Positions 15,397 through 64,000 of a stretch of 64,000 nt of DNA are shown here, piece by piece. Source of the DNA: Geranomyces variabilis. Lineage: Eukaryota; Chytridiomycota; Chytridiomycetes; Spizellomycetales; Powellomycetaceae. A program made the position numbers and the translations under genes. Location of the stretch: positions 61,428 through 125,427 of the forward strand of contig JADGJP010000051.1 in NCBI GenBank assembly GCA_027603065.1. Reading direction: 5' to 3'. The stretch's first letter is position 1. Each line of letters starts with the position of its first letter. The notes below the pieces were generated by a model, which worked only from the letters and a program-made list of their open reading frames with translations, made no database searches and was not told the origin of the DNA.

Positions 15397-15474
15397 TCCC
15401 TGGTGGTCTAGTGGTTAGGACGGCCAGCTAAAACTATTTCGCAGGCAACCAAGGTTCGAATCCTTGCCGGGGAC
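15397..15474 (+). tRNA. tRNA-Glu-like gene with an aberrant, extended anticodon arm
   Basis: The 5' part TCCCTGGTGGTCTAGTGGTT is that of eukaryotic tRNA-Glu. The acceptor pairs with CCGGGGA, and the T arm CAAGG/TTCGAAT/CCTTG is perfect and carries the B box. A T10-11 terminator follows. The middle is abnormal: GCCAG, then 14 bases, then CAGGC, with one mismatch in the stem. A CTAAAA loop start followed by a 7-base insertion is one possible reading, but no Glu anticodon (CTC/TTC) falls in a normal 7-base loop. It may be a tRNA-derived gene, a pseudogene or one with a very small intron. Confidence 0.55.
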
Positions 15475-15924: not shown

Positions 15925-16438
15925 CATAGCAGTTACGGATAAGGCCCAGTTAAAATTAAACATTCACAACCTGCGCGAAGGGTTGCAACTTTGAGCAGCT
16001 GTTACCTGAAATGATGTCATAAGTAACATATTATGCCGTTGTAGGCTGGCATTGGCATTTGCGACGGCTACATAATAACTGGGGGTTGCTGATACACCAC
16101 TGTCGATAAGTAAGCGGCCTGTCAGACAGGGTAAGTCATTGGGGATTTGGGAGAGCGATCGGGGCAAAATGCTGCGCCACGCATAGCAGTTACGGATAAG
16201 GCCCAGTTAAAATTAAACATTCACAACCTGCGCGAAGGGTTGCAACTTTGAGCAGCTGTTACCTGAAATGATGTCATAAGTAACATATTATGCCGTTGTA
16301 GGCTGGCATTGGCATTTGCGACGGCTACATAATAACTGGGGGTTGCTGATACACCACTGTCGATAAGTAAGCGGCCTGTCAGACAGGGTAAGTCATTGGG
16401 GATTTGGGAGAGCGATCGGGGCAAAATGCTGCGCCACG
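15925..16438. repeat. Exact 257-bp tandem duplication
   Basis: Unit 1 (15925-16181) and unit 2 (16182-16438) appear identical base for base; each starts catagcagttacggat and ends ctgcgccacg(c). The copies lie immediately upstream of NAP1 (start 16518), so they double its likely promoter/5' UTR sequence. The identity implies a recent event or an assembly duplication. Confidence 0.9.
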
Positions 16439-16517
16439 CACGTGGTTTGCCGGCTTCGCTTCTGAGTCCGGCCAAGAAGACTCGCGGCTCCACGAGCATC
16501 CTCCACCAGCCAACACA

Positions 16518-40196: not shown

Positions 40197-40550
40197 TCCG
40201 GAAGAGAGCGAGAGTTGGGGGTGAAAAGAGCGGGGTGAGGGGTTGGTGGCCCCTGTGTGCTGCTTTTTAGATAGTGCGTGTGGAGGAAAGGGAAGTGAAA
40301 AGGGGTTTGTGTGGGGGAGAAAGATTTGCGGCGCTTACCCCATTTGAGCTGTCAGAAAAAAATCAAACGGGGCTCCCGGCCGACACCTCCGCTCTCCTTC
40401 CTTTCTTCTTTTTACCCCTCTTGCGTGCAGTCGCATTAGGGGCAGCCTCAATCTTCTTTTGTCGGGATAACGCACATTGAGTGGACGATTTTTTGAAAAG
40501 CACGCCGAGGCTAGGATGCCAAGCTCAACAAAGTCTACCGACACAAAAAA

Positions 40551-40707
40551 TTACAACCAAAAAGACACAAAGCAAACAAAAAAAAATGGCAATTTCCAAT
40601 GCCTGCAAAGCGGGCGGAGCAAAAAAATCATATACAGGTATTCCCTGACGCGACTGGTGAGAGCATTCGACTCGATGATTCGAGTGGTGTGGCGCTTCCC
40701 AGGGGTT
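40551..40707 (-). repeat. Diverged copy of the caleosin 3' flank
   Basis: On the minus strand this matches 45942-46085 on the plus strand. Shared blocks include GGGAAGCGCCACAC, GCGTCAGGGAAT, ACCTGTATATGATTTTTT, GCTCCGC and CGCTTTGCAGGCAT, with small indels. Function is unknown; it may be a short dispersed element. Confidence 0.7.
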
Positions 40708-40844: not shown

Positions 40845-40949
40845 TACAGCCAGAGGACAAAAGTCGGAGAGCCCCCCCAGCCGCCAAGCCGTGCACTCTC
40901 TTCCTGCGAAAATTTTGGGGGGGTCTCCGACTTTCGTCCTCTGGCTGTA
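40845..40949. mobile_element. MITE-like element A with long terminal inverted repeats
   Basis: Left arm 40845-40878 begins TACAGCCAGAGGACAAAAGT; right arm 40917-40949 is its near-perfect reverse complement with about two mismatches. The 38-base centre is non-coding. The outer motif TACAGCC...GGACAAAAGTC is shared with a second element at 42828. Confidence 0.75.
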
Positions 40950-41807: not shown

Positions 41808-42100
41808 GTGCCCATCTGCATCCGCCTGGAAAGGCGTCCCGGGCTTTGGACCGGCTTGGCTGCATTAGCACCCCCACTCCCATCCCTCCCTCCCAAACCG
41901 AGAGGGGAGTGCTCACCCGTCATCCCGAGTGCAAGTTGCCGGGGGGAAGTGAAGATGAGTTGGGAGCAGCCGGACGAGCTCGAGCTTTTATAAGAATTCT
42001 GGGTGTGCGTAGCAAAATGCGCTTTCTGTGTCACCATCCAGCTCCAGCCAATGGGGCAAGCGCGTCCCGATATGGTGAGATGGGTAATTTACAATAGTTG
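41808..42100. repeat. Dispersed repeat unit A (blocks P and Q)
   Basis: Block P (41808-41882) contains GGGCTTTGGACCGGCTTGGC and is found inverted at 48017-48083. Block Q (42041-42100), ending GATGGGTAATTTACAATAGT, is found in direct orientation at 47251-47310. Confidence 0.75.
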
Positions 42101-42611: not shown

Positions 42612-43162
42612 TCAGACTGAGGCATACAGTTGTGTTTCCAATCCACTTACAGTCATCTAATAGAGCGCGGATGGCCCGCAGCAGCCTGCAGGTAAATGGC
42701 TTCTCATCGCCAGCAGGAATCCCGGTAATTTGATCTTTGTGTCGATCAGCCGAAAGCAAAGCTTTCGGTAGCCAATTAGCAGTTTTTGATAAGCCGCGGT
42801 GATCTCAGGCATGCACCCATTGGCTGACTTACAGCCCCCGGACAAAAGTCAGAAACCCCCCTCGTCACAGACTTTCTGACTTTGGTCCGGGGGCTGTAAG
42901 AAGCATTGGTGTAAGTGGTTGCGCCATTGCATCAGAATCAGATATCCTCTGGACCAGGCGCGCAGAAAGTGCCTCTGGCACTGGCGAGCAGTAGTAGTCA
43001 CTTGCAGCTTCACGACGTCCCTTGCATTGAAGTTGATATGCGTCGCTCGCTGTAAGTTTGGGGATCTGTGCAGTCCTGCCGAGGACTTCTCGAGACAGGC
43101 ATGAAGCTCTAGTCTGCAGCTGAGTGCTGACGTGGCCCCATTTAAGGCCTTGTAGGGATGCT
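42612..43162. other. Intergenic region with a second inverted-repeat element
   Basis: It contains MITE-like element B. Nothing else recognised. Confidence 0.45.
42828..42900. mobile_element. MITE-like element B, near-perfect 28-bp hairpin
   Basis: Left arm 42828-42855 (CTTACAGCCCCCGGACAAAA...) pairs with right arm 42873-42900 with one mismatch around a 17-base centre. The arms share TACAGCC...GGACAAAAGTC with element A. Confidence 0.75.
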
Positions 43163-43888: not shown

Positions 43889-45018
43889 CCGAGGGTTGAC
43901 GTGATTTCTTGGATCAACCTGTCAAGATATGGAATGCAAGGAATCAGCCTTTAGCCGCTAGTGCGTTCAATTGAGCGGGTACCAATGATACTGACAGGAC
44001 GCCGCTGAGGAATGGTCGTCGTTTCCGTGGCTACTAGGTGGCGCTACCATGTGGCCGTTCGTTCGGTGATGTGGAAAAACGAGAAACGCCACGCCTCTTG
44101 CGACGGCAGGAGTCGGAGGTGAATCACTGGCGGCGTCGGCCTGAGGAATTAAAAAAGCGATGCAGAGAAGAAATTAGTCTGAGACAAAATGATAGACAGG
44201 TCGAGTCGGTCGTAGCCCCACCACCTAAACGACCTCCCTTAACATTGCTTACTCCTTCCGAGTTCAGGTCGGTGACGGGTTGCGGAGCCGGGTACACATG
44301 TGACGATGGCCCAGAGCGGCGATTTACCAGTGACAGCTGCCTTCTCTCGCAATCGTCGCTCGAGGGGAAATCACTGGTTGCGAGAACGGAGCATGGGAGG
44401 CGGACGATAGTTTGAGAGCAAGCGGGTCCGCAGGCGATCGCAAAAGGAAAAGAGAAACGCGGAGGACTAAGCAAGAGTGAGACCGGGGCCAAGCGATGCT
44501 TTTTTAAACACGTAGTCCTCTCCTGCGCCTCCTTTTTTTCTTTTCCAACAGGGGATGAACTCCCGGGTTTCACAGCACAATCCGCGCAATTTGTGCCGGA
44601 AAGGCGACCGTGGAACACCTTGTGCAATGGTAATTCTGTTTGATTGTGCGACGCCAAGCCATCAATGGTGCTCAGCAGTGCGTGCGGTGTACGCTTTGCC
44701 TCTTTTGGTTGGGTGGGGTCACTGGGCATCGGATGGAGAGCGGGCCAGCAGAGCCATTTTGCACGAGCGAGGAGCTGTCAGAACAAAAGGAAGAAAAAGA
44801 AAGGCGAACGAGGTCACTGTTCGTCATTTTCATGACAGCACGCGTCATAGCAAACTCCTTCCTACGTTACTGTCTCTCCCCCACCGCTGGCACCCCACCC
44901 CCACACAACAAGTCACTGGTCTCAGTGGTCTGGTATTTAGCTCGCTACACTTTTTACTGTCTCCCTCTTGTCATTGCTCATTTTGTTGCATTTTTCACAC
45001 CTCGTACTAGAAACTACA
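43889..45018. other. Intergenic region upstream of caleosin
   Basis: No supported gene. The last 200 bases are the caleosin promoter. Confidence 0.4.
44832..44848 (+). promoter_or_regulatory. Caleosin promoter bZIP half-site pair
   Basis: ATGACAGCACGCGTCAT contains a TGAC and a GCGTCA half-site facing each other, similar to the CON-6 promoter elements. It lies about 170 bases before the start codon. Confidence 0.5.
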
Positions 45019-45937
45019 ATGTCCGCCGTAGACGGTCCGCTCACTACTCAACGCACGACGACTCTCGCTCGTGCGATGCCCAACGACTTTGCGCTCTGGA
45101 AAGCTCAACAGGACTCCGCACTCGAGCGCGCTTTGCATCAAAGATCGCCAACCGGCGCCGTCAGCACCGCCGCAGGCGTGCAAAAGCTCACCCCGCTTCA
45201 AAAGCACGTCGGGTTTTGGGACCGCAACAAGGACGGTCTCATTTATCCTTGGGAAACATTTGCCGGTTTCTATGCGCTCGGCTTCAACCCTCTTCTCGCT
45301 CTCGTCTCTGCACTCGCATTCCACATTTTGCACGTCGGCTACCCGACGCACTCCTCGTGGATTCCAAACCCTTTGCTGCCTGTCGAAATCGCAAACATCC
45401 ACCGTGCCAAACACGGGTCCGACACCGAATCTTATGACACCGCGGGCCGATTTGTGAGGGAGAAGTTTGAGCAGACGTTTGCCGCGTACTCGAGCGTGGA
45501 AGGGAAGGAAGGCCTGACGTTCAGCGACATTCGCCACATGTGGGTTGGAAATCGCAACGTGGGCGATGTCATCGGGTGGAGCTTTCAGGTGTTTTTGTGG
45601 GCTTTCTTGTGGGCACTTGCGGCGGACGCAGAGACGGGTGTGCTGCACAAGGAGGATGTTCTCCGGCAATACGATGGGTGAGTTACGCGCGAGGAGGAGA
45701 CAGGAGAAAATGTCACTCCGCTTGCTGAGGTCTGATCATTCTTTGTCTTCTTTGTCTCTCTGCAGTACGCTCTACTACGAACTCGAAATCTACCGTAAAA
45801 ACCACCGCCTGCCCTGGTTCCGCGGCGGCACGGGCCTCGGCTGGCCCAAGACATCTGCGGCCGCCACGGTGCGCTCCGCGGTCCGCGGCAAAACCATCAA
45901 GCAGAACGGATCGAGCAAGGGCGTCAAGACACAATAA
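45019..45937 (+). CDS. Caleosin (lipid-droplet, Ca-binding, haem peroxygenase family)
   Basis: Exons 45019..45677 and 45766..45937; 276 residues. It has a single EF-hand, DRNKDGLIYPWE (about 75-86), then the amphipathic/hydrophobic segment ALGFNPLLALVSALAFHIL and the proline-knot region SSWIPNPLLPVEIANIHRAK with HGSDT, all hallmarks of caleosins. The two conserved His residues for haem coordination are present (in AFHIL and NIHRAK). A short basic tail ends the protein. Caleosins coat lipid droplets and oxygenate fatty acids; in fungi they affect lipid storage, sporulation and oxylipins. The promoter carries a bZIP site pair. Confidence 0.95.
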
Positions 45938-45941
45938 AAAT

Positions 45942-46085
45942 GACCCCCGGGAAGCGCCACACGCCTCTCGCGAATCGCGTCAGGGAATTACCTGTATATG
46001 ATTTTTTGTTTTGCTCCGCGCGCTTTGCAGGCATATGGAAATTGCATTTTTTGTTGTTTGCTTCGTGGTTTTTTGGTTATAAATT
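45942..46085 (+). repeat. Caleosin 3' flank shared with 40551-40707
   Basis: Starts five bases after the caleosin stop. See the inverted copy for shared blocks. Confidence 0.7.
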
Positions 46086-47250
46086 TCTTTGCAAGCCAAG
46101 AAATGCCCACGTTCACGTTGATCCCTTCAGATCCGTCTACTTTCAGCATATCATGAACTCAGCGGGTCTTAAAATGAGCAACGGGAGAGAGGATGCGACT
46201 CTTCCAATTGCGGCGTAATTGTCAAAAAAAACACAACGTGCTGTAATTACCGTTGACTTTGCGCCTTTCTTGAACCGTAAGCGCAAGCTTATCGGTGTGG
46301 AGACTTTTTACCCGTCTTGAGGGAGGAATGTCGTCTGCTGCGTTCTAAGCGCGGGCGCACCTGCCGTATACATCGCTTACATCGCTTTGCAAGGAACCAC
46401 TTTCGCGTTGGTTTTCTTCATTCTGGAAAGGAACTAATTGGAAAGAAACATGCGCGGGCGAAAGAGTTTTTATTCTTAATCAACGGTTGACATATGGAAA
46501 GCTTGCCAATAAGCGCCAGGGTTGAAACGGCCAGTTTTTCCTCTATGAGCCGATGTTACTTTTGCTTGAACTTGCGCTGCTTGGGAGGGTTGCGTCGATG
46601 AGCCGCTCGGCAAGAATAAGCGCATTTGGAACGTCGGAATTTGATGCGCGACCACAGCTTTGGCAAAGGGATCGAAGGCATCAAATCAAGTCGTGATGTG
46701 GTCGCGCATTGGAGGCCGTCCTTCCTGCGGGGTTGCCGTTGTCCTGTTGCTAGTCTCTCCGTTACGGGAATCAATTTACTCTGTCCAAAAGGTAAGGCAC
46801 GCTAACTGTAGCTTGCCACGCTATCGCGTCCAGATCTCATTGATATAGAAAGGCTATGTCGCCTGAACCCATCTCGGCCCGGTGTCACCGACTCGACTTT
46901 GATGTCTGCCACCTCGCGCTTCATCATAGCTTCACCGACGTTGCAAGTGTCTTGCAAAAGCATGACCCACAGAAGGGACACAGCCGTCACCCGATTTTGA
47001 ATTTTGATATTCGGGTTTTGCGGATCAATGGCCATGAGACCAAGGACTTCATTAACCGAGGCCTTCTGTGCGGCGTTTCTGAATGCGGCGGCTGACGTTT
47101 GCGCAACCGTTTAGGGGTGAGGACTCAAGCTAGTCTTCTTCGCAACAAGCGAGTCAGGACAGGATATCCTCATTACACCTTATTTGGTCAAATGAGGCAC
47201 CGCATTTGGTTATATGAGGTGTAGGTGGCTGTGCAGACGCGGTCGCGTCG

Positions 47251-48083
47251 CGTCCAGCCAATGGGGTAACGGTTGCCTTTTATGGTAAGATGGGTGATTT
47301 ACAATAGTTGGCGCACCACCTCGACCATCACACATCCTCATCCTCCTCCTTCCTCTCGCACCACCGTTCTCAGAACACCTACGACGATACGCCGTGCCCA
47401 CCAGGCATTACGACGCACCTACGACGACGTCGTGCCCTCCAGGCTCAAGTCTTATGTATTGGTAAGTTTTTGTTCGTCCTAGTCTCGGAGGTCCGGGTAA
47501 AACCGAAAATCCAGGTGGTTGGCATACTCGCGAGTATGTAACGTCATTAGCACGCGTAGTAAGGCCTTCCCGTACTGGGGCTAGCGGCACTGCCTGTTCC
47601 ACATCATTTCGGTGGTGTGCAACGTCCCGCTCCGCACCTTTCCTGCCTGTCCTGATCGGTCGTGGCCACTAGGGACTGGTCTTGAGCGAGGCAAATCCGT
47701 GGTTAGCCACCTCCACCCCGCACTGTGTATTTGGTAGTTGGAAACGGTCATCGTTTCGTTAGGATTTGAATACTAATTACCTTTGCGCTGTTCTTTCTTT
47801 CGTTTTTCTCATATTAACCCCACAAATAAACGCGGTCGGCGGCGACATCGACTCCAACAACGGCGGCGACCTCGGACGACGACCTCGACGGCGACTCGGA
47901 TCGAAGACCTCGGACATCGACTTCGGACGACGACCTCGGACGCTAAGAACTGGATCTAAGTATTTTTGGTATAGCCGTGCGTCCCAGGCATAGTGGACGA
48001 GCACCCCGAGGTAGGATGGGGTGCTAATGCAGCCAAGCCGGTCCAAAGCCCGGGACGCCGTGGGGCGGATGCAGATGGGTACT
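47251..48083. repeat. Dispersed repeat unit B (block Q direct, block P inverted)
   Basis: Q lies at 47251-47310 and P, inverted, at 48017-48083. The DNA between them (about 700 bases) holds GGCGAC-type triplet repeats near 47838-47945 and no clear gene. Confidence 0.65.
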
Positions 48084-60719: not shown

Positions 60720-62513
60720 ATGACAACCGGGGAGGAGCTTACGCATACCACAGACACCAGTCGCCCAGTGACCGTCGGCTCTCGCCTTTGCGTCGCCGGC
60801 CACTTTGGAACCGTTCGCTTCCGCGGTCCCGTACCCGCCGGCTCGGATGCGATCTGGTTAGGCGTCGAATGGGACGACGCAACACGGGGCAAGCACTCTG
60901 GCACGCATGGCGGCGTCTCGTACTTCCAGACTACCGTAGCTGGCAGCGGCACCTTCTTACGCGAGTCCAAGGTCGGCGCTGACATGCTCCCGCGGTCACT
61001 GTTGGCTGCTATGCAAGAAAAATACCTTGCCGCACAGCCAACTGATAGCGTGGTGCGACTCGGCGGTGCAGCCGACGGTGTCGAGGTGGAAACCGTTGGA
61101 TGGGAGAAGATTGCGCGAAAAGTGAAGGACGGGTCGCGGCTGAAGGAGGTTGGTGTTGCGGATATGCGAGTAGGGTTTCGAGGCGGAGAGCAAGGCGAGC
61201 TTGGACGGCGGTTCCCGGCAATTGTGGATCTCGACTTGTCTCGCTCCCTGCTGGTCCGGTGGTCGGACGTAGCAGAAATCTGCGCTGAACTTCCGCAGCT
61301 GGCATCATTAAGACTGGCTCATAACCGCTTTGCGTCGATAAAGGAGGACCGTGGCGCGGCCGCCCAGAGATTCCTCAATGTCAAAGCGCTCACATTGCAT
61401 CACACCGAGACACCATGGGCTGAGATGGAGGAAATTGCTGCTTTGTTCCCGGTACTAAAAGAGTTGCACTTTGGATTCAACCGGCTGGACGCTTCCCCAT
61501 TTGACGCTCCACGAGATTCATTTGGTTTCGCACATCTCCGCTTGCTCAATCTCGAATACAATAATTTGACATCGTGGTCAGCCATAAAAGGGCTTGGCCA
61601 ATTGCCGTGCTTGACAGCACTGATGCTCAACGGCAACGCTATCCAAAACGTCGAGGTCCCTGCCAGCAACGAGTTTGCATCTCTTACGACGCTCAACATT
61701 TCGGACAATCAACTTAGTTCATGGGCCGCCATACACGCGCTCAATGGCTTTCCCACACTCACAATAATTCGCCTGCAGCGCAATCCGATCCTCGACAACC
61801 TCCCGCCAGCGGACGCCCGATCCATTCTCACCGCCCGCCTTGCAAACGCCACAGTCCTCAACGGCGCCGAAATTACCGAAAGGTTCCGCCGCGACGCTGA
61901 ACTATTTTACCTCTCGCTCTACGCGAAAGACGCAGCAACCGAAGATCCGGCTTCATTTGCACGGACTCATCCGCGACACGCTGCGCTGGTTGCATTACAT
62001 GGCGCACCGGCAATTGCGCCAGCGTCTGCAACTTCTACTATTCTCAAGGACCGTGTTTTGACGCTAAGTTTTGTTTATGGGGAGAAGTCTGCGCGCAAAA
62101 AGGTACCGATCAACATGGGTATACGGCCGTTGAAGGTTTTGGTGGCGCGTGTCTTCAAGATTCCGGATGCAACGGCGTTAGTATTGACCAAGATAGAGGA
62201 AGGTGGTGGGGACGTTGAGTTGGATGATGACTTGCGGGACGTGGATTTCTATGGCGTTGAGAGCGGCAATAAAATAAGAGTCGGCCTGTATACGGATATT
62301 GTCACATTGAGTAAAACGGGTCGGTTTCCGCGAGACGCGCTTGCTTCGCGGTTTCCGCGAGACACGGCTTCCTTCTCGGTTTCCCTACCCCATTCCCCAC
62401 CCACATTGTGCTGTGCGTCCGTCTGCGTAGTTCTTTTGTTTCCCACCACCCTCCCTTGGGTAATTGTCCATACTGAGGGTCATGCAGCGCACTCCGCGCA
62501 CAGCAGCGCCTAA
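60720..62513 (+). CDS. TBCE: Tubulin-specific chaperone E (TBCE), with an abnormal C-terminal tail
   Basis: Single exon, 597 residues, start MTTGEELTHTT. The CAP-Gly domain (about 20-80) has GTVRFRGPVP, WLGVEWDD and GKHSGTHGG; a leucine-rich-repeat region follows (LRLAHNRFASI, LHFGFNRLDAS, LNLEYNNLTSW, LNISDNQLSSW, IRLQRNPILDN). A ubiquitin-like domain (about 450-535) ends near GNKIRVGLYTD, where TBCE normally stops. TBCE helps assemble alpha/beta tubulin with cofactors A-D. The frame then runs about 65 residues through a low-complexity tail (SRFPRDTASFSVSLPHSPP...), which looks foreign and may reflect insertion of the neighbouring element. Confidence 0.93.
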   Translation: MTTGEELTHTTDTSRPVTVGSRLCVAGHFGTVRFRGPVPAGSDAIWLGVEWDDATRGKHSGTHGGVSYFQTTVAGSGTFLRESKVGADMLPRSLLAAMQEKYLAAQPTDSVVRLGGAADGVEVETVGWEKIARKVKDGSRLKEVGVADMRVGFRGGEQGELGRRFPAIVDLDLSRSLLVRWSDVAEICAELPQLASLRLAHNRFASIKEDRGAAAQRFLNVKALTLHHTETPWAEMEEIAALFPVLKELHFGFNRLDASPFDAPRDSFGFAHLRLLNLEYNNLTSWSAIKGLGQLPCLTALMLNGNAIQNVEVPASNEFASLTTLNISDNQLSSWAAIHALNGFPTLTIIRLQRNPILDNLPPADARSILTARLANATVLNGAEITERFRRDAELFYLSLYAKDAATEDPASFARTHPRHAALVALHGAPAIAPASATSTILKDRVLTLSFVYGEKSARKKVPINMGIRPLKVLVARVFKIPDATALVLTKIEEGGGDVELDDDLRDVDFYGVESGNKIRVGLYTDIVTLSKTGRFPRDALASRFPRDTASFSVSLPHSPPTLCCASVCVVLLFPTTLPWVIVHTEGHAAHSAHSSA

Positions 62514-62710
62514 CCATTCCCTCCTTTCCCACGCAGACATCTCTTTTTCTTGTGTCGCCCTCCCTCCTCTGCCTGCCTTTGCCCACTACGCTGCACGCCG
62601 CAGCATTCTGACTGTGCTGCTCTCTCTCAGGTAAGTCCAATCTCATGCTCATGCAGCGCACTCACCACACAGCAGCAGCGCCTAACCTTAGTCTCCTCCT
62701 TCCATGCTCC
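62480..62710 (+). repeat. Tandemly duplicated leader of the mobile-element-like ORF
   Basis: TCATGCAGCGCACTC with nearby CACAGCAGCGCCTAACC occurs at about 62480-62526 and again at about 62648-62700, with small differences. Period about 168 bp. It leads into the ATG at 62717. Confidence 0.65.
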
Positions 62711-62716
62711 ACAGCC

Positions 62717-63982
62717 ATGTCTCGTCGCCGCCGCCGCTCATTTAACCTACAATCTCTTCCACGGACGCCACCTCTCGGGTCGCCGCCGCCACCGCCCAGC
62801 AAGCGTCAACGTTGGAATGAGGAGGCCGCCCGCCATGCTGCAATCTTTGTAGGAGATGCTGGCGCACAGCTGGACGAGGTTGAGGTGGACGCTGGCGCAC
62901 AGCTGGATGAGGCTGAGGTGGACGCTCGCGCAATGGAGCTGGACGAGGTTGAAGAGGTGGATGCCGGCGCAATGCAGCTGGATGAGGTTGAAGAGGTGGA
63001 CGCCTACAACAGCTTGCGATGGCGTGCACCTCAGAGGTGGGCCAATTCACATGGCCCTCCACCACCGCCGCTGCCACCTGCCGAAAGAGCCAAGCGCTCG
63101 CTGCCCAGCAACTACGTGTGCGTGAAAGCCCGTTTCGGTTCCATCATCCACAACAACAAGGCTGGTGAGGTGGCAAGACTTCAAGTTTTCCTCCGCCACG
63201 TGCATCTTATCACCCAACGAGCATCATGGATAGTGAAGCTGTGGTACGCTAACATGCCACATCCGGAGGTATGTGCTGCTGATTTAAAGCAGAGCATTAT
63301 TATCCATCATATAGTGACTTCTATCTTTTTTTTCAAGCATGCACAGATCTTGACAGACAACGACGTCAAACATCTGCTGAATGCCCTCAATTATGCTGAA
63401 ATCACTCGCGGCGGCATCTTTCAAGGCACGCTAGATGAGTACGACACCAATGTTGAGACTCTGACAGCGGTATCACAAGGCCCAGGGTGTGGACGTAGCT
63501 ACCTGCAACATATGATTGCCTACACCGCTACCAGCTTGGTTACAAACCTTGAGGTCAACGTGTCTGTCAACTTCATGAAGAAGTTGCGCCAATATGTCGA
63601 GCACAGGTTTCGCATCAAGCTGATCTTACGTTCATTCAACCACGTTACCGACAAACGTATCCGCAAGTTTCTGTGTAAACGTCTACGGCGTCGTTTTAAG
63701 CGGATGTGGAGGCTGATCACAAACCAGGATGTTCTCGCTGATGGCAAACTACCGGCCTTTGAACCGGCTTCTGACAGCGTTTTCTTTGATATTTGGGGTG
63801 AGATCTGGTGCATCTTGCCGGATGATCTGAAACGCTTTGAGTTCAATCTCGCATATGCGGTGGCATGCAAACCCGCAAAATACATTGGCGCGTACTGCGC
63901 ACTCTCTCGTTTGTGGCAAGCGGTATCACAGGGCACTATTTCCCTGAGGGAAATAGTGCCCTGTGATAGGTTATCCATATAG
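62717..63982 (+). CDS. Fanzor1-like transposon protein, N-terminal part only (no nuclease domain)
   Basis: Single exon, 421 residues. A basic start (MSRRRRRSF) and Pro-rich stretch precede four acidic tandem repeats (AGAQLDEVEVD, AGAQLDEAEVD, ARAMELDEVEEVD, AGAMQLDEVEEVD). From about residue 130 the sequence follows the N-terminal region of Fanzor1 (eukaryotic TnpB-related) proteins as I remember it: RHVHLITQRASWIVKLWY, YLQHMIAYTATSLVTNLEVN, VNFMKKLRQYVEHRF and ILPDDLKRFEFNLAYAV. Full members continue into a RuvC nuclease; here the frame ends at 63982, just after a palindrome. So it is truncated, interrupted by an insertion, or spliced to exons beyond the window (a GTATCA donor lies at 63923). 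Assignment is by motif pattern only. Confidence 0.55.
   Translation: MSRRRRRSFNLQSLPRTPPLGSPPPPPSKRQRWNEEAARHAAIFVGDAGAQLDEVEVDAGAQLDEAEVDARAMELDEVEEVDAGAMQLDEVEEVDAYNSLRWRAPQRWANSHGPPPPPLPPAERAKRSLPSNYVCVKARFGSIIHNNKAGEVARLQVFLRHVHLITQRASWIVKLWYANMPHPEVCAADLKQSIIIHHIVTSIFFFKHAQILTDNDVKHLLNALNYAEITRGGIFQGTLDEYDTNVETLTAVSQGPGCGRSYLQHMIAYTATSLVTNLEVNVSVNFMKKLRQYVEHRFRIKLILRSFNHVTDKRIRKFLCKRLRRRFKRMWRLITNQDVLADGKLPAFEPASDSVFFDIWGEIWCILPDDLKRFEFNLAYAVACKPAKYIGAYCALSRLWQAVSQGTISLREIVPCDRLSI
63924..63968. mobile_element. Perfect 22-bp palindrome with 1-base loop
   Basis: TATCACAGGGCACTATTTCC plus CT pairs perfectly with 63947-63968 around G63946. It sits inside the last codons of the Fanzor1-like ORF. 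It could be a tiny inverted-repeat element, a transposon end or a recombination scar. CGGTATCACA also occurs at 63470-63479. Confidence 0.8.
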
Positions 63983-64000
63983 GTTACAATAGAGCTATGT

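What the first reader, a model, noticed from the sequence alone, without database searches (positions are those of the whole stretch)
62717..63982. Fanzor1-like ORF at the window edge with acidic tandem repeats and no nuclease domain
The region from about residue 130 has the order and spacing I know from N-termini of Fanzor1 proteins, the eukaryotic relatives of TnpB and Cas12 that cut DNA with a guide RNA. Two points are odd. Four tandem LDEVE-type acidic repeats precede the conserved part. The frame stops at a palindrome before any RuvC motif. It may be a nuclease-less derivative, a remnant, or a spliced gene with its RuvC and guide RNA to the right of 64000.
Basis: partly seen in the sequence, partly recalled or inferred. 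Interest (0 to 1): 0.75.

Follow-up and report, generated by a model that had tools for sequence, protein, structure and literature searches.

The report
Broken Fanzor1 gene with fold-back insertion
This is the front part of a gene for Fanzor1, a known family of RNA-guided DNA cutters carried by eukaryotic mobile DNA; a tiny hairpin-shaped insertion appears to have broken it near the window edge, so it is most likely an ordinary decaying copy and not a new nuclease-free protein.

Summary
An ORF of 421 codons (62717-63979, stop 63980-63982) carries four acidic tandem repeats and runs into a perfect palindrome (63924-63968). The Fanzor1 assignment holds too. Of 177,635 distinct PDB sequences, the best hit is Spizellomyces punctatus Fanzor1 (SpuFz1), E 4.5e-8, over query residues 264-402, which is SpuFz1 129-255, the REC region.

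The "no nuclease domain" point does not hold. The first catalytic residue (SpuFz1 D383) would lie about 125 codons past the break, near 64350, outside the window even in an intact gene.

The palindrome looks like a 41-bp fold-back element flanked by TA, a MITE-like insertion. It is one of only three TA-flanked palindromes found in 64 kb. When the flanks are joined at a single TA, the SpuFz1 alignment runs on for three residues (VGY against YGF) and the score rises slightly. Two other readings gain nothing.

That joined reading meets a TAG as the eighth codon after the TA codon, so the copy is probably decayed, unless splicing at the unseen edge removes the stop.

Verdict: a new member of a known kind, interrupted by a small transposon. 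Low interest. Two inverted twister-ribozyme matches at 41.8 and 48.0 kb deserve a separate look.

The parts
62717..63982 (+). ORF of 421 aa: N-terminal part of a Fanzor1 gene, broken at its right end
62631..62714 (+). possible 84-nt leader intron: GTAAGT donor, CTAAC, CAG acceptor two bases before the ATG at 62717
   Evidence: pattern scan, (81 candidates on the + strand of the window, so weak); inferred
62717..62854 (+). basic and proline-rich start of the protein (MSRRRRR..., PPPPPSKRQR), nuclear-import-like by eye
   Evidence: translation; motif reading is recalled, not tested
62855..62995 (+). four tandem acidic repeats (LDEVE type), 33- to 39-nt units
63044..63247 (+). residues 110-177, weak match to the start of SpuFz1 (first WED residues and beginning of REC, by inference); K137 falls on SpuFz1 K25
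   Evidence: 0.6-bit second domain; not significant alone
63407..63409 (+). Arg231, 33 residues before Gln264, the same spacing as SpuFz1 R96 to Q129 (R96 contacts the TAM)
   Evidence: and passages of PMC10432273; R96 itself was not seen in any alignment here; suggestive only
63506..63922 (+). residues 264-402, match to SpuFz1 129-255 (REC domain), 31% identity
   Evidence: and 33, with a profile that contains SpuFz1
63924..63968 (.). TA-flanked perfect palindrome: 41-bp fold-back (MITE-like) element plus the TA on each side
63969..63974 (+). right flank: first two codons of the joined-flank reading (GY), aligned to SpuFz1 GF (chain 651-652)
63990..63992 (+). in-frame TAG in the joined-flank reading: an apparent second lesion, or non-coding sequence

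Best explanation
The ORF is the 5' half (first WED residues plus most of REC) of a transposon-type Fanzor1 gene in a eukaryotic, probably fungal, chromosome. An intact copy would make an RNA-guided DNA nuclease: REC and WED read the target-adjacent motif and hold the guide-target hybrid, and RuvC, encoded farther right, cuts. That function is inferred from SpuFz1. In this copy a 41-bp fold-back element inserted at a TA, duplicating it. That shifts the frame and ends translation after 19 more codons past the last matched residue. The joined reading has a stop as the eighth codon after the TA codon, so the copy is most likely a decaying pseudogene. The acidic repeats are a minisatellite expansion in a variable, probably disordered N-terminal extension that begins with basic, nuclear-import-like motifs. 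Shown: the homology, the repeats, the palindrome and its TA flanks. Inferred: insertion, decay, disorder, nuclear import and nuclease function.
For: SpuFz1 is the best of 3 PDB hits at E<=10 among 177,635 sequences, E 4.5e-8. The chain numbering minus 394 reproduces eight SpuFz1 residues named in PMC10432273 (H21, T22, K25, Q129, Q130, N133, Q148, R157). A two-row profile that includes SpuFz1 itself also ranks a second Fanzor1, from Parasitella, next at E 0.036 over the same part. The SpuFz1 match stops one base before the palindrome. Joining the flanks at one TA extends it to chain residue 652 and gives a domain score of 36.9 bits (E 1.3e-8), against 34.5 (E 8.1e-8) for read-through and 34.3 (E 9e-8) for GT-AG removal. 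Of 200,000 stop-free random 9-mers from the window, 1,327 (0.66%) match the three SpuFz1 residues as well. The palindrome is one of 3 TA-flanked palindromes found in the window, against 0 in each of 5 mononucleotide shuffles; the other two form one family. The core is less GC-rich (48.4%) than any 2-kb step of the window (49.4-60.7%).
Against: The resumed alignment is only three residues (one identical, one similar), a gain of about 2.5 bits, found post hoc among four readings compared, with queries of slightly different length (147, 149, 158 aa). The joined reading stops at its eighth codon after the TA codon, so the right flank may not be Fanzor coding sequence at all. The palindrome occurs once in the window and has no exact match in viral contigs, so it is not shown to be mobile. 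No second copy or transposon ends of the Fanzor element were found in the window, and no relative in the two collections scanned. The Guillardia Fanzor1, reported as solved in PMC11423790, did not appear in either PDB listing. PMC11423790 names SpuFz1 residues Q152 and N159, which fit the chain only if its numbering is one lower than that of PMC10432273. The structure model was poor (mean pLDDT 42.9) and Foldseek gave nothing at E<=0.001.
Confidence: 0.72

Rival explanations
1. The palindrome is removed as a 47-nt GT-AG intron (63923-63969), an introner-like element whose splice sites come from a G-TA...TA-G insertion site, and the gene continues intact to the right.
For: The bases on both sides give GT...AG exactly around the palindrome (sequence), and the spliced reading (AVIHIGYNRAM) is open to the window edge (right-flank frames). 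Introners with inverted ends, and some that take splice sites from the target, exist (PMC9860276, passages).
Against: The spliced reading adds no match to SpuFz1 (34.3 bits) while the empty-site reading does (36.9). The donor GTATCA lacks the G at +5 seen in three kinase introns that I read by eye from the sequence printed (GTATGA, GTATGG, GTACGT). The 47 nt hold no CTRAY branch-point motif (read by eye).
Confidence: 0.08
2. The palindrome is the left end of a longer element (for example a hairpin-ended transposon) or of a rearrangement, and the rest of the Fanzor1 gene lies kilobases to the right or is lost.
For: The joined reading stops soon. Only 32 bases beyond the palindrome can be read. 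Helitron2 elements with hairpins at both ends are described in the Fanzor literature (PMC3627910, abstract and Results).
Against: The TA on both sides and the three resumed residues (VGY against YGF) fit a complete 41-bp insertion.
Confidence: 0.12
3. A nuclease-less Fanzor1 derivative: the 421-aa REC/WED protein is made and kept for its own function, such as competing for guide RNA.
For: The frame is open for 421 codons while the other five frames of the core hold 7 to 22 stops, so the N-terminal part has not decayed much.
Against: The absence of RuvC is forced by the window edge. The last 19 codons come from the palindrome and its flank, and their reading adds no match to SpuFz1. No relative of any kind was confirmed in the two collections scanned, so a conserved short form has no support.
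Confidence: 0.04

Closest known systems
SpuFz1 (SPu-1-1p), Fanzor1 of Spizellomyces punctatus
   Same: REC region, 31% identity over SpuFz1 129-255 in a pairwise alignment; Q129 is kept as Q264; an Arg lies at the spacing of R96
   Different: About 112 residues of extra N-terminus (by the weak K137/K25 match) with basic/proline and acidic repeat parts; TAM-contacting Q130 and N133 are H265 and A268 here; this copy is interrupted. SpuFz1 is a 633-aa single-ORF protein in a roughly 2.1-kb element (PMC3627910, Results read)
PpFz1, Fanzor1 of Parasitella parasitica
   Same: Aligned over the same part in a profile search, E 0.036
   Different: Far weaker match, and the profile already contained SpuFz1
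TA-target miniature inverted-repeat elements (Tc1/mariner-type MITEs; the type is recalled)
   Same: Perfect inverted ends, TA on both sides, 41 bp so no coding capacity
   Different: Very short, and a single copy in this window
Introners (transposon-derived introns)
   Same: Inverted ends and GT/AG around the insert
   Different: Removing it as an intron does not extend Fanzor homology

Membership tests
Fanzor1 | Significant similarity to a proven Fanzor1 in the REC/WED part | tested here: met
   phmmer E 4.5e-8 to SpuFz1, first of 3 hits at E<=10
Fanzor1 | RuvC catalytic residues (SpuFz1 D383, N385, E541, D606) | not testable with these tools
   They map about 125 codons and more past 63974, beyond base 64000; no own genome is held
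Fanzor1 | C4 zinc finger followed by RD in the C-terminal half (PMC3627910) | not testable with these tools
   Beyond the window edge
Fanzor1 | Guide RNA from the right end of the element | not testable with these tools
   Beyond the window edge; no Rfam match at E<=1 in 62200-64000
Fanzor1 | Lies in a transposon with inverted ends or target-site duplication | tested here: inconclusive
   Left end not identifiable without the right end; the palindrome arms do not recur elsewhere in the window
Nuclease-less Fanzor derivative | Complete gene without RuvC | tested here: inconclusive
   Gene is cut by the window edge; the place of RuvC cannot be seen
TA-target MITE | Inverted ends flanked by TA | tested here: met
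   1 of 3 such structures found in 64 kb, 0 in each of 5 shuffles
TA-target MITE | Several copies in the genome | tested here: inconclusive
   One copy in the window; whole genome not held
Introner | Spliced reading continues the host protein | tested here: not met
   No extension of the SpuFz1 match, 34.3 bits; only 10 codons could be tested

The most novel reading that the evidence does not exclude
The palindrome is a 47-nt hairpin intron created by a TA-target fold-back transposon inside a living Fanzor1 gene, so that a mobile element carried within another mobile element's nuclease gene is tolerated because it is spliced out.
Probability: 0.06. Interest if true: 0.5.

Novelty: new member of a known kind. 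Interest (0 to 1): 0.2.

Why it matters
It adds a Fanzor1 copy with an acidic, repeat-bearing N-terminal extension. It also shows how a window edge and a 43-bp insertion can mimic a nuclease-free protein. Broken Fanzor copies are expected from the partial loci reported for S. punctatus (42 loci with full-length (19) or partial genes; PMC10432273 passages). If intact sister copies exist in this genome, the N-terminal extension could be studied there.

Tried and rejected
Another family: Pfam gave only a low-complexity-looking match below its cut-off (PF22812, E 0.036, best stretch residues 17-35); NCBIfam and PHROGs gave none. PADLOC was not searched. Relatives elsewhere: viral contigs with the single protein (4 pattern matches, 0 confirmed) and with the two-row profile (21 matches, 0 confirmed); genome contigs, which holds bacteria and archaea, with the profile (38 matches, 0 confirmed). 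The patterns are strict, so this is weak evidence of absence. The palindrome in viral contigs: 0 exact matches to the whole or to one arm. Structure prediction from one sequence gave an all-helical but unreliable model (pLDDT 42.9, pTM 0.37). Foldseek on it gave 85 matches at E<=10 and 0 at E<=0.001; none of the 50 rows shown is a Fanzor; discarded. The palindrome as the Fanzor element's own inverted end: its arms occur nowhere else in the window with up to 3 mismatches. A fold-back assembly artefact: not favoured, because the mirror image stops after 22 bases, but not excluded. Literature on truncated or repeat-bearing Fanzors: searches (40 of 82 papers listed), listings only; no title or abstract start shown there describes a nuclease-less Fanzor1 or acidic tandem repeats in one. 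Full texts were not searched beyond these terms.

Full report
What is there. The ORF at 62717-63982 is real and far longer than chance (456 open codons in 62600-64000 against at most 225 in 500 mononucleotide shuffles). Its start is rich in Arg and Pro. Four acidic tandem repeats follow at 62855-62995, and a 272-codon core at 63107-63922 has no stop in its own frame and 7-22 stops in each of the other five. A perfect palindrome lies at 63924-63968, and the frame ends at TAG 63980-63982.

What it is. Against 177,635 distinct PDB sequences the 421-aa protein has one meaningful hit, SpuFz1, E 4.5e-8, residues 264-402 to chain 523-649; the other two hits at E<=10 are at 0.83 and 1.9. Subtracting 394 from the chain numbers reproduces eight residues named in the SpuFz1 paper (PMC10432273, passages read), so the stretch is SpuFz1 129-255, in the REC domain. 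Two residues named in PMC11423790 (Q152, N159) fit only with numbering shifted by one. A second Fanzor1, from Parasitella, follows at E 0.036 when a profile that includes SpuFz1 is used. Against this, the Guillardia Fanzor1 did not appear in either listing, and Pfam, NCBIfam and PHROGs returned no Fanzor or TnpB model. Of the three SpuFz1 residues listed for TAM contact in this stretch, one is identical here (Q129/Q264) and two differ (Q130/H265, N133/A268). PMC11423790 (passages) says that Fanzor1s use non-conserved residues for different TAMs and share a groove-binding Arg. That this Arg is SpuFz1 R96 is my inference. Here an Arg (R231) sits 33 residues before Q264, exactly as R96 sits before Q129; one Arg at one spacing is only suggestive.

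Why no nuclease is seen. SpuFz1's first catalytic residue, D383, lies 125 residues past the last residue aligned (F258). Without insertions or deletions it would fall near base 64350. The window ends at 64000, so the absence of RuvC says nothing about the gene.

What the palindrome is. It is bounded by TA on both sides. A scan for TA-flanked inverted repeats (arms of 14 nt, at most 1 mismatch, span 30-300, low-complexity arms skipped) finds three in 64 kb and none in each of 5 mononucleotide shuffles. The other two, 40845-40949 and 42830-42898, share an end sequence and form one family. TA-flanked fold-back elements therefore live in this genome, and the palindrome looks like another kind of them, 41 bp without the TAs. 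Three readings across it were compared against SpuFz1 in the PDB search: read-through 34.5 bits, removal as a 47-nt GT-AG intron 34.3 bits, and empty site with one TA kept 36.9 bits, with the alignment extended by VGY against YGF. A fourth join, without target duplication, was scored only by matrix and was worst. Of 200,000 random stop-free 9-mers, 1,327 (0.66%) match as well as VGY; with four readings compared after the fact this is moderate evidence, and the gain is only about 2.5 bits.

What that means. The insertion shifts the frame. The empty-site reading itself runs into TAG at 63990-63992, so the copy carries an apparent second lesion, or an intron or other non-coding sequence begins there. 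A decaying Fanzor1 copy is the simplest account; partial copies are reported in S. punctatus (42 loci with full-length (19) or partial genes, PMC10432273 passages).

The N-terminal extension. The repeats are 33-39-nt minisatellite units, which explains their likeness. PMC10432273 (passages) reports disordered N-terminal segments of 96 and 61 aa in two Fanzor2 proteins, and PMC3627910 calls the N-terminal regions highly variable (abstract). Disorder here was not tested, and the nuclear-import reading is by eye and recalled. Upstream, 62631-62714 looks like a leader intron ending two bases before the ATG, which would support the start at 62717; the scan gives 81 candidates on that strand, so this is weak.

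Setting. The window is eukaryotic: peroxin-13, nucleosome assembly protein, a protein kinase with a Pkinase_C tail split by introns, C2H2 zinc fingers, subtilase, caleosin, Sel1, and a CAP-Gly/LRR protein just left of the ORF. A fungal host is my inference; no own genome is held.

Papers: PMC3627910, abstract and Results section read; PMC10711439, abstract and passages, nothing rests on it; PMC10432273, passages; PMC11423790, passages; PMC9860276, passages; all others, search listings only.

Noticed in passing
47992-48053 (+) and 41808-41871 (-): Two twister-ribozyme matches in inverted orientation about 6.1 kb apart: Twister-P5 at 37.9 bits (gathering 37.6) and a twister-P1 match at 32.5 bits, below its gathering score of 67.2 (E 0.00051 for 8 kb). 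They share a perfect 42-nt inverted repeat (41833-41874 / 48018-48059), and the caleosin ORF (44968-45681) lies between them.
   Followed up: partly
40845-40949 and 42830-42898: Two TA-flanked palindromic elements of one family, 105 and 69 bp, with ends TACAGCCnnnGGACAAAAGTC.
   Followed up: partly
62466-62525 and 62635-62697: A segment between the CAP-Gly/LRR gene and the Fanzor ORF is duplicated 169-172 bp apart (81-84% identity); by eye both copies end in an intron-like CTAAC...CAG, as if an intron had been copied in tandem.
   Followed up: partly
15925-16440: A 257-bp unit in exact tandem duplication (100% identical), close to two tRNA-like genes at 15397 and 15693, of which Rfam reports only the first at its gathering score.
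   Followed up: no
40542-40627 and 46006-46091; 42043-42100 and 47253-47310: Further diverged inverted (86 nt, 81%) and direct (58 nt, 81%) repeats in the same 40.5-48 kb stretch, suggesting a nest of mobile elements.
   Followed up: no
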